Below are positions 39,757 to 63,301 of a stretch of 64,000 nt of DNA, piece by piece. The notes below the pieces were generated by a model that was given only the letters and a program-made list of their open reading frames with translations, was not told where the DNA came from and searched no databases. The DNA is from Nocardioides sp. Kera G14 (GTDB taxonomy: Bacteria; Actinomycetota; Actinomycetes; Propionibacteriales; Nocardioidaceae): contig NZ_CP085839.1 of the NCBI RefSeq assembly GCF_020715565.1, positions 2,790,001-2,854,000 of the forward strand, given 5' to 3'. Position numbers and translations under genes: made by a program. The first letter of the stretch is position 1. The number at the start of each line of letters is the position of its first letter.

Positions 39757-39804
39757 GGTTGTGAGTGGCTGGCCACGCTCTGGCGTGGCCAGCCACTCAC
39801 AACC
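39757..39804. repeat. Family-A extragenic palindrome, copy 1
   Basis: Perfect 22-bp arms (39757-39778 and 39783-39804, core GTGAGTGGCTGGCCACG) with a 4-nt loop. It lies between the ends of ppk1 and the AbiEi-like gene. The second copy is on the other side of that gene. Confidence 0.93.
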
Positions 39805-39807
39805 CGG

Positions 39808-40704
39808 TCAGGCAGCGCGAGGAAGACCGAGCTTGATCAGATCGCGCGCGATCCGGTCAGGATCATCGCGCAGTTCGCGCGCAGTACAGCGGATGATGAT
39901 TCGGCCGGGCTCGCTCAGAGCACGTTGACGAGCCAGATCGTCCTCCCAGGACTCGACGTCCAGGTGGAAGAGGCCGTCGACCTCGAGGATCAGGATCTGC
40001 CCGCTCGGCAGCCGCCACTCGCAGTCCGTGAAGCGGGTGCGGCCCTCGCTGTCCTTGCGCTTGACCTGGCCCTTCGGTGGCGGGAAGCCGAAGCGCTTGC
40101 AGAGCCGGCGGATGTCGATTTCGGCGAGCGACTGCGCACCGCCAGCCATCTCGGACAGGGCCACGTGGAGAAGCTTGGATCGCTTCAGCGGCTTGAGCAG
40201 CCGGACCCACCTGACGAGGTCGTCGGGCGTGGTCAGTTGCTGCTGGATCACGGCCGCGAGGACGCCCTGAGCGGTGCGTTCGGAACGGTCAGCAGCTCCG
40301 AAGAGGAGGACCGCGGGTTCAATGAGCATGCGTGGCACGCCCTCGGCCGGACTGCGCATCGTCTCGATCGCCCGGCGTGAGCGCACGTATCTCACACCAG
40401 CGACCTGAGGCGGCACCTCGGCCTTGTAGGGGACGACCACCGTGATCTCATCACGGTCCCAGCGCTGGAGTCCTGCAACCGCAGCTGCCGTGAGTCCTCC
40501 GAGCATCGCTCCGTCGCCGCCGTTCAGGACGCCGAGCCATCTCCGCTGCTCGAGCGTCAGCTGCCCCGTGGATGTGCACAGCACCGTGGAGGACAGCTTC
40601 TGCCACCGGTCACTCCTGATGCGGTTGGCTATGGCAGACCAGGTGAGACCCGCCGCACGGGCTTGAGCGAAAGTGATGACACCTGCCTGACCGGTGGCGG
40701 TCAT
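39808..40704 (-). CDS. AbiEi-like N-terminal domain plus DUF559-like nuclease-fold protein (gene A)
   Basis: This 298-aa protein starts with a winged-helix-type domain (FAQARAAGLTWSAIANRI, like AbiEi antitoxin N-termini). It ends with a Vsr/DUF559-like restriction-endonuclease-fold domain: DCEWRLPSGQILILEVDGLFH, then DDLARQRAL and IIIRCTARELRDD. Candidate catalytic residues are E and D of LEVDG. GGAGAG precedes the ATG at 40704. The gene is flanked on both sides by family-A palindromes. Such proteins are abundant in Nocardioides-type genomes, as I recall, usually annotated as AbiEi-family antitoxins. No nucleotidyltransferase AbiEii toxin is next to it. Confidence 0.72.
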   Translation of the reverse strand: MTATGQAGVITFAQARAAGLTWSAIANRIRSDRWQKLSSTVLCTSTGQLTLEQRRWLGVLNGGDGAMLGGLTAAAVAGLQRWDRDEITVVVPYKAEVPPQVAGVRYVRSRRAIETMRSPAEGVPRMLIEPAVLLFGAADRSERTAQGVLAAVIQQQLTTPDDLVRWVRLLKPLKRSKLLHVALSEMAGGAQSLAEIDIRRLCKRFGFPPPKGQVKRKDSEGRTRFTDCEWRLPSGQILILEVDGLFHLDVESWEDDLARQRALSEPGRIIIRCTARELRDDPDRIARDLIKLGLPRAA

Positions 40705-40803
40705 CCGCCATCTCTCCGCTCTCGCCGACGCCAGACTCATGTCCCACAGGGTGCCCCACAGCCAGAGTTCGCGTCGGGACTCATCCACAGCCCCCTCAGC
40801 CCG

Positions 40804-40857
40804 CCGGGTTGTGAGTGGCTGGCCATGCCAGGGCGTGGCCAGCCACTCACAACCCGG
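40804..40857. repeat. Family-A extragenic palindrome, copy 2
   Basis: Arms at 40804-40829 and 40832-40857 (26 nt each, one wobble mismatch). The core is the same as copy 1 (GTGAGTGGCTGGCCA), with the loop region changed. It lies between the end of pit and the start of the AbiEi-like gene. Confidence 0.93.
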
Positions 40858-55566: not shown

Positions 55567-55618
55567 CCGCGGGTGAATGGTTCCGGCAGCGATGGCTGCC
55601 GGAACCATTCACCCGCGG
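55567..55618. repeat. Family-B extragenic palindrome, copy 1
   Basis: Perfect 24-bp arms (55567-55590 and 55595-55618, core GGTGAATGGTTCCGG) with a 4-nt GATG loop. It sits between the convergent ends of the second histidine kinase and the SCP-like gene and could serve as a bidirectional terminator. Confidence 0.94.
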
Positions 55619-58080: not shown

Positions 58081-59316
58081 ATGGCCGGTTTCCGGGAGCT
58101 CGCTCGCAACCACGACTTCAGCGTGCTCTGGATCGGGCAGACGGTCTCCGAGCTCGGGGCGCGGATGAGCAGCTTCGTCTTCCCGATCATCGGTTTCGCG
58201 CTGACCGGCAGCGCCTTCTGGGCGGCGAGCGTGGAGGCGGTCCATCTCCTCGGCATCGTCGGCATGCTGCTGCCCGGTGGTCTCTGGGCCGACCGCCTCG
58301 ATCGCGCACGGCTGATGCGGACCTCCACCCTGCTGGGCTTTGCGGCGTACGCCTCGGTGACCGTCGCAGGAGTCTCGGGTCACCTCACCACGCCGCACCT
58401 GCTCGTCGCCGCACTGGCGGCGGGCGTGGCGACCGGCCTGTTCGAGCCCGCTGAGTCCTCGGCGATCCGATCGCTCGTCAGCGATGAGGAGTTGCCGACG
58501 GCGTACAGCCAGATGCAGGCGCGCGAGCACATCGCCTCCCTGCTCGGCGGTCCGATCGGAGGGGTGCTCTACGGCGTCGCCCGGTGGCTGCCGTTCCTCG
58601 CCGACGCGCTCTCCTACGCCTTCATGTGGGTGCTGCTGCACCGGCTGCGGACTCCCCTGCCGGGCCTCGCCACAGGAACCTCGGGGCCGCTGCAGGACGT
58701 CGCCGAGGGGCTGCGCTTCAGCTGGTCGACGCCGTTCTTCCGCGTCCTCATGGTGTGGGCGCCGCTGATGAACCTGGTCGCCAACGCCGTTGCCCTGCTG
58801 GCGATCCTCCGTCTCGTGCAGGCCGGGACGGCGCCTGCGACCATCGCGCTCGTCGAGGTTGCGGCGGGGGTCGCCGGCATCCTCGGTGCGGTCATCGCGC
58901 CGTGGCTGATCGAGCGGATCCCGACGGGGATGCTCTCCGTCGTGCTCGCGTGGTTCTCGGTGCCGCTGCTCGTGCCGCTGGCCTTCTGGAACTCGCCGAT
59001 CGTCGTCGGGGCCATGCTCGTGCTGGTGCTGCTGGTGAACCCCGCCGGCAATGCCGGGATCGGTGCCTACCGGACCGCGATCACGCCACGCGAGCTGCTC
59101 GGGCGGACGCGGTCGGCGATGCAGTTCGTCTCGATGTCCGCGATGCCGCTCGCGCCCCTGGTTGCCGGTGGGCTGTTGACGCACTTCGGCGGACGGGACT
59201 CGGTGCTGGTGATGGCGCTGCTGCTCGTCGGGGTCGCCCTCATCCCCACCCTGTCGACCTCCGTGAGGTCGGTGCCGCGGCCGGCGGTCTGGCGCGTCGA
59301 AAGGATGGCGGCCTAG
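58081..59316 (+). CDS. MFS transporter
   Basis: This 411-aa protein has twelve hydrophobic segments. It has FSVLWIGQTVSELGARMSSF at the N-terminus, GGLWADRLDRARLM (the loop 2-3 motif) and EPAESSAIRSLVSDEELPTA, typical of MFS efflux pumps of the EntS/MFS_3 type. An ATG at 58069 (MVRDMAG) is also possible. It is likely controlled by the divergent ArsR-type regulator; the substrate is unknown. Confidence 0.9.
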   Translation: MAGFRELARNHDFSVLWIGQTVSELGARMSSFVFPIIGFALTGSAFWAASVEAVHLLGIVGMLLPGGLWADRLDRARLMRTSTLLGFAAYASVTVAGVSGHLTTPHLLVAALAAGVATGLFEPAESSAIRSLVSDEELPTAYSQMQAREHIASLLGGPIGGVLYGVARWLPFLADALSYAFMWVLLHRLRTPLPGLATGTSGPLQDVAEGLRFSWSTPFFRVLMVWAPLMNLVANAVALLAILRLVQAGTAPATIALVEVAAGVAGILGAVIAPWLIERIPTGMLSVVLAWFSVPLLVPLAFWNSPIVVGAMLVLVLLVNPAGNAGIGAYRTAITPRELLGRTRSAMQFVSMSAMPLAPLVAGGLLTHFGGRDSVLVMALLLVGVALIPTLSTSVRSVPRPAVWRVERMAA

Positions 59317-59326
59317 GTTCGGTGGC

Positions 59327-59737
59327 ATGGCCACGAAACTGAACCCGTACCTCTCCTTCACCAACACCGCGCGCGACGCGATGGAGTTCTACAAGTCCAT
59401 CTTCGGCGGCGAGCTCAACGTCTTCACCTTCGGCGACATGGGCGCCGAGGACGAGACCGCGACCCTCGTCATGCACGCCTCGCTCGTCACGCCGAGCGGC
59501 TACACGCTCTTCGCCTCCGACACCCCGCCGGGCATGACGACCACGCCCGGCTCCAACATCACCATCTCGCTCTCCGGCCCACTCGCCGACGAGGCGGAGC
59601 TCCGCGGCTACTGGGACGCACTCGCCGCCGACGGCACCGTGCACATGACGCTGGAGAAGCAGGTCTGGGGTGACATCTTCGGCCAGCTCGTGGACCAGTA
59701 CGGCATCCCGTGGATGGTCAACATCGGCCAGGAGTGA
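59327..59737 (+). CDS. VOC/PhnB-like protein
   Basis: This 136-aa protein has the PhnB-like pattern LNPYLSFTNTARDAMEFYKSIFGGE, then DGTVHMTLEKQVWGDIFGQL and DQYGIPWMVNI. It folds as a vicinal-oxygen-chelate module. Metal ligands typical of glyoxalase I are not all present, so the reaction is unknown. It starts 10 nt after the MFS gene. Confidence 0.88.
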   Translation: MATKLNPYLSFTNTARDAMEFYKSIFGGELNVFTFGDMGAEDETATLVMHASLVTPSGYTLFASDTPPGMTTTPGSNITISLSGPLADEAELRGYWDALAADGTVHMTLEKQVWGDIFGQLVDQYGIPWMVNIGQE

Positions 59738-59759
59738 CCCTCCTCGTCGCCACCCCTCA

Positions 59760-59820
59760 CTTAACTGCTGGTCAACGCTCGCCCGAGGCCCTCTCGAGGG
59801 CTCGTTGACCAGCAGTTAAG
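59760..59820. repeat. Family-C extragenic palindrome, copy 1 (contains the gene C stop codon)
   Basis: Perfect 18-bp arms (59760-59777 and 59803-59820, CTTAACTGCTGGTCAACG and its complement) around a 25-nt centre. The TTA at 59816-59818 is the TAA stop of the adjacent DUF559-like gene. Confidence 0.94.
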
Positions 59821-60664
59821 CCCACGCGAGCGGCCCGAGGCCCAACTTTCGCTCGAACTCCCGGCGCCCGGCTCCTCGGTGAAGGCTTGCGGTCAGGAGA
59901 TGGACCCACGGCCAGGGATCGAGACTCCGACCCAGCACCGCCTCGATCGGCCGCAGGACCTCCTGCGGGGAGTCGAGCAGATCCCTCGAGACATAGGCCC
60001 GCCGCGGACGATCGAGGTCCGCAAGCTGCCGGTCGCGCACCAGGTCCTTCCGCTGTACCTCGGCAGCGCGGTGCTGTGCGCCGTCGTACTCCTGGATCTG
60101 CCCGGTCGCGTCGACCACAAGATCCGCTCGGGCAACGAACCGGCCGAACTCGTCGAGGATCTCGACCTGGGGCGTGACGCTCAGGCCTGCCGAGACATGC
60201 AGCAACCGCAGCCTCGTCTCCCACGGTGACTCCGATCTCGCGTCCGCAAGGGCCAACGCCTCGCGGAAGCGGACCACGCCGCGACGCTTCCGGCGGCCGA
60301 TCCCCTCCAACTCCGCCCTCGTGCACAGCTCGAAGTGGAGGGCAGCGTCGATCAGGATCACCGCGTCGAGCAGACCGAGGTAGCGGCAACAACAGACCAA
60401 CGTCTCCCCGATCGTGACGATCCGGACACCGTCCACATCCACTGAGGCCGGCGCCACAGGATGGCGAATGACCAGGAGTCCGTCGCGAACCGGAGTGGTC
60501 TCATACTGGCGACGGGCCAAGGCAGTCATGACTGGCATGTCGGTCGGCAGGCGGGGCGTCCACAGCCCATGCGCCTGGGCGGCTGACAACCCGGTGAACG
60601 CGGCGCCCTCGGGCAGCACCGGTTGCCAGGCACGCATGACCGCCAACGCCGTGGCCTGCTCCAC
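59816..60664 (-). CDS. AbiEi/DUF559-like nuclease-fold protein (gene C)
   Basis: This 282-aa protein begins with a region like the AbiEi-associated N-terminal module (FTGLSAAQAHGLWTPRLPTD). It ends with a Vsr/DUF559-like domain (VARADLVVDATGQIQEYDGAQH, then RDRQLADLDRPRRAYVSR). Candidate active-site residues are the Asp of ADLVV and Glu/Asp of QEYDG. The GTG at 60664 is my choice because a palindrome lies right upstream; a longer reading would run through it. The palindrome on the other side contains the stop codon. Confidence 0.7.
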   Translation of the reverse strand: MEQATALAVMRAWQPVLPEGAAFTGLSAAQAHGLWTPRLPTDMPVMTALARRQYETTPVRDGLLVIRHPVAPASVDVDGVRIVTIGETLVCCCRYLGLLDAVILIDAALHFELCTRAELEGIGRRKRRGVVRFREALALADARSESPWETRLRLLHVSAGLSVTPQVEILDEFGRFVARADLVVDATGQIQEYDGAQHRAAEVQRKDLVRDRQLADLDRPRRAYVSRDLLDSPQEVLRPIEAVLGRSLDPWPWVHLLTASLHRGAGRREFERKLGLGPLAWA

Positions 60665-60667
60665 TGA

Positions 60668-60728
60668 CTTAACTGCTGGTGAAGACCGTCTCGGGCGCTT
60701 CCCCGAGGCCGATTGACCAGCAGTTAAC
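60668..60728. repeat. Family-C extragenic palindrome, copy 2
   Basis: TTAACTGCTGGTGAA (60669-60683) and TTGACCAGCAGTTAA (60713-60727) are arms with one mismatch. It begins 4 nt upstream of the chosen GTG start of gene C. Confidence 0.92.
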
Positions 60729-60939
60729 GGCTGCGGGTCGACGTACGGCGGCGGCTGGATCCAGACGCCGCGGCTCGGATGGAGGGCTGTTGGATGCACG
60801 ACGGGGAGGCTCGCACCGTCGGGGAGTAGTGCGACCAGCCTCCGCGCCGGGTTGTGGAGTGCCGCGCCCTGGCTGTTCGTCGGACACGCACGACGGTCCG
60901 GTTTGGGACTGACGTGACGTGTCTGGCACGACCGCTCGC
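60729..60939. other. 211-bp stretch between two family-C palindromes
   Basis: No credible gene, RNA or terminator beyond the flanking palindromes is visible. Any promoter for gene C should lie here. Confidence 0.5.
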
Positions 60940-60998
60940 TTAACTGCTGGTCAACCGGTCCCGGAAACCGTCAGGAGCGACCGTTGACCAGCAGTTAA
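60940..60998. repeat. Family-C extragenic palindrome, copy 3
   Basis: Perfect 16-bp arms (60940-60955 and 60983-60998, TTAACTGCTGGTCAAC and its complement) around a 27-nt centre, 12 nt after the purL stop. It may double as the purL terminator. Confidence 0.93.
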
Positions 60999-61009
60999 AA
61001 GCGCGGGGG

Positions 61010-63301
61010 TCAGTGCTGGATCGCGACGACGGTGGTGTCGCCGTCGAGGGCCTGAGGCAGGGTGGCCTGCCAGGCCTGCTTGAGCTCGGCGACGGGGATC
61101 TCGAACTGGCCCTCGAGCGTGAGCGTCTCGCCCGCGGTGATGCCGATCTCGGTGACCGCCACACCAGCAGCGGAGGCGGCGCGGAGGAAGGCCTCGCCGT
61201 CGTGCAGGTGCGTGGTCACCATGATCCGGCCGGCGCTCTCGCTGAACAGGGCGAGGAACGGGTCCTCGAAGACCCCGATCTCGGCGCCGACGCCCCGGCC
61301 GAAGCTGGCCTCGGCCAACGCCTGGGCGAGGCCGCCGTCGGAGAGGTCGTGGGCGGAGGTGATCAGGTCGCGGGCGTCACGCAACAGCGAGGCGTTGCGC
61401 TGCTCGGCGGCGAGGTCCACGCGTGGCGGCAACCCGCCGAGGTGGCCGTGGACGACGTGCGCCCACTCCGAGCCCGAGAGCTCCTCGCGGGTCTCTCCGA
61501 GCACGAAGATCCGCTCTCCCTCGGCCACGAAGGCCGACGGGATGCGACGGGTCACGTCATCGATGCGGCCGAGCGTGGCGACGACCGGCGTGGGCAGGAT
61601 CGCCACGTCGCCCGTCTGGTTGTAGAGCGAGACGTTGCCGCCGGTGACCGGGACGCCCAGCGCGAGGCAGGCGTCCTTCAGGCCGCGGCACGCCTCGGCG
61701 AACTGCCACATCACGTCGGGGTCCTCGGGCGAGCCGAAGTTGAGGCAGTCCGAGATGGCGAGCGGCGTCGCCCCGACCGTGGCGACGTTGCGGTAGGACT
61801 CCGCGAGCGCGAGCTGCGCGCCGCGGTAGGGGTCGAGCTTCGCGAAGCGGCCGTTGCCATCGGTCGAGAGGGCGACGCCGACCGTGGAGTCCTCCGCGAT
61901 CCGGATCATGCCGGCCTCGGCACCCTTGGAGAGGATGGTGTTGCCGCGGACGTAGTGGTCGTACTGCTGGGTGATCCACGTCTTGTCACACAGGTTCGGC
62001 GAGGCCACGAGCTGCAGCCAAGTGGCGCGGAGCTCCTCAGTCGTCGAGGGGCGAGCCAGGGCCTCGGCCGCATCGGCCTGCAGCGCGTCCTGCCACTCGG
62101 GGCGCGCGAAGGGACGCTCGTAGACGGGGCCCTCGTGGGCGACGGTCCGCGGGTCGACGTCGACGATCGTCTCGCCGTGGTGGTCGATCACCAGCCGGCC
62201 GTCCTCGGTCACCTCACCGATGGTCGCGGCCTCGACGTCCCACTTCGCGCAGATGGCGTAGAAGGTCGCCTCGTCCTCCGGCGCGATGACCGCCATCATC
62301 CGCTCCTGCGACTCGCTCATGAGGATCTCCTCGGGAGTCAGCGTCGAGTCGCGCAGCGGCACCCGCTCGAGGTGCACGTGCATGCCGCCGTCACCGGCCG
62401 CGGCCAGCTCCGAGGTGGCGCACGAGATGCCAGCGGCGCCGAAGTCCTGGATGCCGCGCACGATGCCGCTCGCGAAGAGCTCGAGCGTGCACTCGATGAG
62501 CAGCTTCTCCATGAACGGGTCGCCGACCTGCACCGACGGGCGCTTCGCGGGGCCGTCCTCGTCGAACTCGACACTCGCGAGGATGGAGGCACCGCCGATG
62601 CCGTCGCCACCCGTCCGGGCGCCGTACATGATGACGAGGTTGCCTGCGCCGGAGGCCTTGGCCAGGTGCAGGTCCTCGTGCCTCAGTACGCCGACGGCCA
62701 GCGCATTGACCAGCGGATTGCCGAGATAGGTCGAGTCGAAGACGACCTCGCCGCCGATGTTCGGCAGGCCGAGGCAGTTGCCGTAACCGCCGACTCCGGC
62801 GACGATCCCGGGCAGCACGCGGTGCGTGTCCGGCTCATCCAACGGCCCGAACCTCAACGGATCCATGACCGCGACCGGCCGCGCGCCCATGGCGAGGATG
62901 TCGCGGACGATGCCGCCCACGCCGGTCGCGGCGCCCTGGTAGGGCTCGACGTACGACGGGTGGTTGTGCGACTCGACCTTGAAGGTCACGGCGTAGCCGT
63001 CACCGATGTCGATCACGCCGGCGTTCTCGCCGATACCCGCGAGCAGCGGGCCGGCGGGGGTCTCCTGCGGCACCTCACCGAACTGCTTGAGGTGCACCTT
63101 GGAGGACTTGTAGGAGCAGTGCTCGGACCACATCACCGAGTACATCGCGAGCTCGGCGCCGGTGGGACGACGGCCGAGGATCTCGCGGATCCTGGCGTAC
63201 TCGTCCTCCTTCAGCCCCAGCTCTGCCCACGGCAGTGCCTTGTCAGGGTCACCGGCGGCGACGGAGACGGTGTCGAGGGCAGCGATCTGAGCCGAGGTCA
63301 C
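61010..63301 (-). CDS. purL: Phosphoribosylformylglycinamidine synthase subunit PurL (small type)
   Basis: This 763-aa enzyme makes FGAM in purine synthesis together with separate PurQ and PurS. Motifs are the N-terminal [40 protein letters not shown], the later [11 protein letters not shown] and the [15 protein letters not shown] block. Length fits the actinobacterial small form. A GTG at 63301 and a TTG at 63310 are both possible starts. purQ and purS are not in the window. Confidence 0.96.

What the first reader, a model, noticed from the sequence alone, without database searches (positions are those of the whole stretch)
59760..60998. AbiEi/DUF559-like gene tightly bracketed by three identical-core palindromes
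Three palindromes sharing TTAACTGCTGGTCAAC arms lie at 59760, 60668 and 60940. The first contains the stop codon of the DUF559-like gene; the second ends 4 nt before its chosen start. The gene and its palindromes look like one unit. REP/RAYT systems pair a palindrome family with a transposase-like gene; here the partner carries a Vsr/DUF559 nuclease-like domain with candidate residues in QEYDG. I do not know of this pairing being described (I could not check).
Basis: partly seen in the sequence, partly recalled or inferred. Interest (0 to 1): 0.8.

Follow-up and report, generated by a model that had tools for sequence, protein, structure and literature searches.

The report
Nuclease genes with matching flanking palindromes
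In soil bacteria of the Nocardioides group, genes for a DNA-cutting-type enzyme often sit between two copies of a roughly 55-letter mirror-image DNA sequence, each gene line has its own version, and some versions are scattered through the genome, which suggests a previously undescribed kind of mobile or self-spreading DNA.

Summary
The three palindromes are real: 57-nt cores, arms AACTGCTGGT, 7 copies in this genome, none with exact arms at that length in 214 other genomes of the genus. The central idea, a DUF559/Vsr-like gene paired with its own palindromes, holds beyond this window. Of 93 gene loci, 40 are bracketed by palindromes with shared arms; the cross-locus background is 3-4%, and 0 of 26 random loci score. 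A second AbiEi/DUF559-like gene in this window (39808-40788) has its own, different pair. Arms follow the gene lineage: 62 of 64 same-position pairs share arms, 0 of 9 paralogue pairs within a genome do. One arm family is dispersed, up to 59 copies per genome. The modelled nuclease domain best matches the EDxHD homing endonuclease I-Bth0305I. It works like REP/RAYT but is not a member: no Y1 transposase found. Nuclease action on the palindromes, and mobility, are inferred; 53 of 93 loci show no bracket.

The parts
59816..60799 (-). Gene C: AbiEi-like/DUF559-like two-domain protein, 327 aa with the 20-residue insertion; C-terminal EDxHD/Vsr-like nuclease domain (QEYDG region)
   Evidence: Pfam gives no significant hit for this protein; P0124 gives DUF559 E 9.6e-4, just under the family cut-off
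59762..59818 (.). Palindrome c1 (57-nt core), 3' end of gene C, supplies its TAA stop
60670..60726 (.). Palindrome c2 (57 nt), inserted in frame in the N-terminal part of gene C (LTAGQ...SPAVK)
   Evidence: absent from homologue P0124
60941..60997 (.). Palindrome c3 (57 nt), between the stop of a purL-like gene (61010; named by eye) and gene C start; the second bracket
39808..40788 (-). Gene D: second AbiEi/DUF559-like gene (start uncertain within the ORF), bracketed by a different palindrome family
   Evidence: PADLOC AbiEi E 1.1e-8; Pfam MTES_1575, DUF559 and AbiEi_4 all below their cut-offs
39757..39804 (.). Palindrome d1, arms GGTTGTGAGTGGCTGGCCACGC, 3' end of gene D
40804..40857 (.). Palindrome d2, arms CCGGGTTGTGAGTGGCTGGCCA, upstream of gene D

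Best explanation
Gene C belongs to a family of chromosomal EDxHD/Vsr-fold nucleases (AbiEi-like front part, DUF559-like rear part), many lineages of which are paired with their own ~50-60-bp palindrome: two inverted 12-17-bp half-sites at a fixed distance around a centre that is free to vary. SHOWN: recurrent bracketing, lineage-specific arms, dispersal of one arm family in genomes that mostly hold the gene, in-frame copies in this genome, nuclease fold of the model. INFERRED: the protein binds the two half-sites as a dimer (as the related I-Bth0305I does on a ~60-bp target), its cutting or nicking in or next to the palindrome drives duplication and spread of the palindromes and of the gene between them, and the centre varies because it is not read by the protein. 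In effect a REP/RAYT-like arrangement with an unrelated nuclease. Palindromes that land in genes survive when the one open reading frame through them keeps the host gene intact.
Confidence: 0.6

Rival explanations
1. Operators: the AbiEi-like part is a DNA-binding autoregulator and the palindromes are its binding sites (a regulon); the nuclease fold is secondary.
Against: One palindrome of the pair often sits directly after the stop codon (16 of 31 within 1-8 nt). Of 43 dispersed places 15 were classed as convergent, 17 as codirectional, 4 inside ORFs, 7 unclear and none as divergent, so promoters shared by divergent genes are not the site; four copies here are inside coding sequence. No partner toxin gene was noticed in the ORF list around gene C, though no family search for one was run.
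Confidence: 0.2
2. Hotspot: palindromes are an independent REP-like family and the nuclease gene merely inserts into (homes to) tandem palindrome arrays, so the same arms end up on both sides.
For: Tandem doublets with a 73-nt period are common (15 of 28 spacings); left and right centres are direct copies in 11 of 26 loci.
Against: Each lineage would need its own array family, and paralogues in one genome do not share arms (0 of 9). High-copy genomes all hold a strong homologue (10 of 10). It also still implies that the gene recognises palindromes. Whether families other than GGTGGCGGCA and the one of this finding have copies away from the gene was not searched.
Confidence: 0.12
3. Terminators: the palindromes are bidirectional 3'-end hairpins with no link to the enzyme.
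For: They lie at 3' ends: c3 follows a purL-like gene, d1 follows a ppk-like gene, d2 follows a phosphate-permease-like gene (names by eye), c1 and d1 follow the nuclease genes; the hairpins of the c family are very stable.
Against: Terminators need no sequence identity, yet at least 9 nt of arm match on both sides and differ between paralogues; 0 of 26 random loci and 0 of 51 window tiles show such pairs; some lie inside genes.
Confidence: 0.06

Closest known systems
REP sequences with TnpA-REP/RAYT (REPtrons, REPINs)
   Same: Small palindromes, mostly between genes, in tens of copies, often in tandem, with copies near a partner gene in some genomes (PMC8266576, passages).
   Different: Partner is an EDxHD/Vsr-fold nuclease, not a Y1 HUH transposase (no Y1_Tnp match in this genome); the repeat is two half-sites about 20 nt apart (53-57 nt) rather than a 20-50-nt palindrome preceded by GTAG (same passages); arms differ per gene lineage.
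EDxHD homing endonucleases (I-Bth0305I) and DUF559/Vsr proteins
   Same: Nuclease-domain fold and conserved acidic/histidine residues; a ~60-bp dimeric target is stated for I-Bth0305I (PMC3943268, passages).
   Different: Free-standing chromosomal gene with an AbiEi-like front domain, flanked by intact palindromes; no intron or phage context was seen around gene C.
Rickettsia palindromic elements (recalled; only a literature listing)
   Same: Palindromes read through in one frame inside protein genes, as 4 of the 7 copies here.
   Different: Here many families have a cognate nuclease gene; the host is an actinobacterium.
AbiEi antitoxins (type IV toxin-antitoxin)
   Same: Front-domain resemblance; binding of inverted repeats is known for the family (PMC7319586, abstract).
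   Different: Fused nuclease domain; palindromes also downstream and dispersed.
Integron attC sites
   Same: Length of ~57-60 nt, ends TAAC...GTTA, variable interior, gene between two sites (attC features recalled).
   Different: Arms conserved far beyond the 7-nt core; copies within genes; no integron integrase over the cut-off.

Membership tests
REP/RAYT (REPtron) | Y1 HUH transposase gene (TnpA-REP) | tested here: not met
   PF01797 search of the own genome: 0 matches; it rings in 5 of 14 control genomes. Other genomes were not searched for it
REP/RAYT (REPtron) | Short palindrome preceded by GTAG-type tetranucleotide | tested here: not met
   No common tetranucleotide in the flanks of the 7 copies (by eye); elements 53-57 nt with a non-pairing centre in the 53-mers
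REP/RAYT (REPtron) | Dispersed, mostly intergenic palindromes with copies beside the partner gene | tested here: met
   for the GGTGGCGGCA family; in the own genome 7 copies, 4 of them coding
EDxHD / Vsr-DUF559 nuclease superfamily | Nuclease fold | tested here: met
EDxHD / Vsr-DUF559 nuclease superfamily | Conserved catalytic residues | tested here: met
   E140, D172, H189, D198 invariant, E183 nearly so, in 62 sequences; which residue does what is recalled, not tested
EDxHD / Vsr-DUF559 nuclease superfamily | DNA cleavage activity | not testable with these tools
   needs protein
AbiEi antitoxin | AbiEi-like front domain | tested here: inconclusive
AbiEi antitoxin | Adjacent AbiEii/DUF1814 toxin gene | not tested
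   ORF lists show purL-like, glyoxalase-like, ppk-like and permease-like neighbours, but no family search for the toxin was run
Integron cassette | IntI integrase in the genome | tested here: not met
   TIGR02249: 0 matches over the cut-off, 6 partial matches below it, as in all 14 control genomes
Integron cassette | attC core RYYYAAC...GTTRRRY | tested here: not met
   Flanks read by eye: both boxes complete in 1 of 7 copies; consensus recalled
Transposon with target-site duplication | Direct repeats outside the ends | tested here: not met
   None longer than 1 nt around the 7 copies (by eye)

The most novel reading that the evidence does not exclude
A new class of self-spreading DNA in Actinobacteria: each EDxHD/Vsr-fold nuclease recognises its own ~55-bp palindrome as a dimer, cuts in or beside the variable centre, and thereby copies palindromes (and sometimes the gene between two of them) to new sites, including in-frame into proteins; lineages diverge in arm sequence like rival specificities.
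Probability: 0.35. Interest if true: 0.92.

Novelty: new variant of a known kind. Interest (0 to 1): 0.8.

Why it matters
Dispersed palindromes in bacteria are best known with one enzyme class (RAYT, Y1 HUH). A second, unrelated nuclease family with cognate palindromes would show that such gene-repeat partnerships arise repeatedly, would give a function to a common family of unnamed DUF559/AbiEi-like genes (209 of 214 genomes of the genus have a homologue at E <= 1e-5), and would offer many natural pairs of a protein and its predicted ~55-bp site for testing specificity.

Tried and rejected
The exact arm in relatives: no other family member at full length. Two genomes have a 42-nt hairpin with the decamer after what looks by eye like a tRNA gene, taken as a chance terminator match; no tRNA search was run. 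With 3 mismatches 83 of 214 genomes match, but the counts look like those of the reversed control and the printed list was cut. The covariance model matched 10 of 208 other genomes at up to 27 bits; I looked at 5 of these 10 and took all as noise. Viral contigs: 5 matches, with unrelated centres and four other lengths, one 56 nt long.

TA target-site duplication: rejected, because it would add 55 nt and shift the frame, and the outer bases do not repeat. attC sites: see membership test. Hairpin conserved by covariation: not supported on the 7 copies, and the 53-mer centre does not self-pair; the 7 interiors fold slightly better than shuffles (combined z -2.8). Rfam: none in 59000-61600. Plasmids: no match for P0124 or gene D; phages: one weak match for P0124.

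Mistaken first idea: that this was only an in-frame palindrome family of the Rickettsia type with gene C as a chance target. The other genomes overturned it.

Selection of the 93 loci: 29 homologue loci fetched automatically (L027-L055; the own gene L026 left out) and 2; 60 fetched by place, namely 59 further one search hits in list order, skipping three (G136, G173, G178), and one own paralogue (L154), all chosen before palindromes were looked for there; plus the two window genes. The flank windows of the bracket test were set after a first look at the first 31 loci. L024 and L039 are the same Nocardioides albus locus (100% identical), so distinct loci are 92 and bracketed 39. One of the 43 places is counted twice (L161 and L177). 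The strong/weak homologue list was transcribed by hand; one search compared it with all 214 genomes, repeats it on the 209 that one search had also searched. That the unnamed genus is Nocardioides is inferred from the locus shared by G005 and N. albus.

Literature: the ten searches listed no paper on a DUF559/AbiEi-like gene paired with palindromes; I saw listings only, except PMC3943268 and PMC8266576 (passages) and PMC7319586 (abstract and outline). Most subscription papers are not in that library.

Full report
Observation. Each has a 57-nt core TAACTGCTGGT-N35-ACCAGCAGTTA. The genome (3.47 Mb, one contig) holds seven such elements: three in the window, and four with cores starting at 390678, 2751635 (58 nt), 3147133 and 3147787. 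A covariance model built from them finds these seven on both strands at 44-71 bits, then nothing above 16.5. Among 215 genomes of the genus and 341 of the family the element with exact arms at this length is found only here.

Where the copies sit. Four of the seven are in coding sequence and are read in the one frame without stops, as a 20-residue piece xTAG[EQ]...PAVx: in gene C, in a cheA linker, in a loop of a pcaB-like gene and at the end of that gene. A pcaB-like protein of another Nocardioides (P0004, 63% identical) has a 20-residue piece of the same form at the same C-terminal place; it was the only one besides this genome's own among 333 proteins scanned. Gene C homologue P0124 (62% identical) lacks the piece in the N-terminus. 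So palindrome 2 is an insertion inside gene C, whose start is probably GTG 60799; palindromes 1 and 3 are the bracket.

A second unit in the window. A scan for inverted repeats showed another pair, arms GGTTGTGAGTGGCTGGCCA, at 39757-39804 and 40804-40857. They flank a second AbiEi/DUF559-like gene between a ppk-like and a phosphate-permease-like gene (names of these neighbours by eye). By the shared-arm test these two genes are the only bracketed places in 64 kb; 51 overlapping tiles outside the units gave none.

Other genomes. I took 93 loci (selection in Tried and rejected) and asked for a palindrome on each side of the gene with a shared arm. The strict test (>=9 nt shared) was met by 31 of 93, against 241 of 8556 left/right pairs from different loci (2.8%). 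Allowing imperfect arms, 36 of 93 reached 11 or 12 of 12, against 3.8% of 2500 cross-locus pairs; observed scores were either 0-7 or 11-12. The union is 40 of 93, in 18 of 32 synteny groups; the largest group (25 loci) has only 2. Random loci: 0 of 26 (80.8 kb); loci from an unrelated DNA search: 1 of 32, a GC-rich match; gene loci by the same unoriented test: 30 of 91. In 16 of the 31 strict cases the right palindrome begins 1-8 nt after the stop codon; the others range from -21 to +81. Named examples are Nocardioides albus JCM 3185 (L024) and N. luteus JCM 3358 (L025), arms AGTGGGCGAAAG.

Specific pairing. Arms differ between gene lineages (AACTGGTCGATGGATG, GTGGTGGGTTGGTG, GGTGGCGGCA, GTTGTGTGC, AACTGATGGGTT, GAGTGTGCAGA, AGAACTGCGGCCG and more). 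Counting a shared 8-mer in the arms, bracketed pairs at the same position in different genomes share arms in 62 of 64 cases; paralogues within one genome in 0 of 9; all others in 66 of 706. Arm similarity correlates with protein similarity across synteny groups (r 0.69, 387 pairs of 30 loci, permutation p 0.0005), largely through two groups with GGTGGCGGCA.

Dispersal. The GGTGGCGGCA palindrome occurs in 21 of 209 genomes, up to 59 copies (G198), with one reversed-pattern hit. In 40 loci read, 68 of 71 copies are exactly 53 nt although 48-58 was allowed. The ten outer bases are fixed by the search pattern; the next seven on either side still have a leading base in 51-100% of copies, the centre 32-59%, and the centre does not pair with itself (0.291 against 0.332 expected). 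Of 43 places, 15 were classed as between convergent genes, 17 between codirectional genes, 4 inside ORFs, 7 unclear and none between divergent genes; 15 of 28 tandem spacings are 73 nt. All 10 genomes with 8 or more copies hold a strong gene C homologue, against 97 of 199 others (Fisher p 0.001); with 4 or more it is 12 of 13 against 95 of 196 (p 0.002), with any copy 15 of 21 against 92 of 188 (p 0.04). At one orthologous intergenic site G044 has the element and G091 and G097 do not; four of the other genomes compared carry about 2.3-2.4 kb and one about 3.9 kb of other DNA there (coordinates).

Mechanism. A review states that I-Bth0305I forms dimers on a target of nearly 60 bp (PMC3943268, passages). 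Two half-sites around a free centre, 53-57 bp in all, fit such a dimer. I infer that the protein binds the arms and that its cutting drives duplication and spread. In 11 of 26 loci the left and right centres are direct copies above the 99% null, 4 match inverted, which fits duplication followed by free drift of the centre in a minority of cases. None of this was tested with protein, and no clean empty site was found.

Comparison. It works like REP with RAYT, but is not one: no Y1 transposase match in this genome, no leading tetranucleotide, other architecture. Ten literature searches listed no report of this pairing, within the limits of that library.

None of these required a change of odds.

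Noticed in passing
window 55567-55618: A third, single palindrome with long arms (CCGCGGGTGAATGGTTCCGGCAGC) right after the stop of a sensor-kinase-like ORF; no second copy was reported in the window.
   Followed up: no
L177:14463-14690 and orthologous loci L197, L201, L203, L205, L206, L216: The same intergenic place holds different palindrome families in different genomes (GGTAGTCCAGTGG... in G044 and G198, GGTAGTCCCCATCAAATG... in G050, a related but imperfect one in G097) and none recognised in G010, G022, G090 and G091.
   Followed up: partly
L177:3775-3900; also L075 near its middle: Another repeat, GCTGGTCGAGGA...CGAGACC with inverted ends, present in G044 and absent at the same place in G050; possibly a common Nocardioides repeat.
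   Followed up: no
L016 and L017, 1501-1542: A 42-nt hairpin with the AACTGCTGGT decamer directly after what looks like a tRNA gene in two genomes (G089, G137); perhaps a tRNA terminator.
   Followed up: partly
Synteny group of 25 loci (L104, L116, L125, L127-L130, L134-L136, L138, L140-L153): A conserved, same-position copy of the nuclease gene in many genomes that mostly lacks palindromes (23 of 25), perhaps a settled, domesticated lineage.
   Followed up: partly
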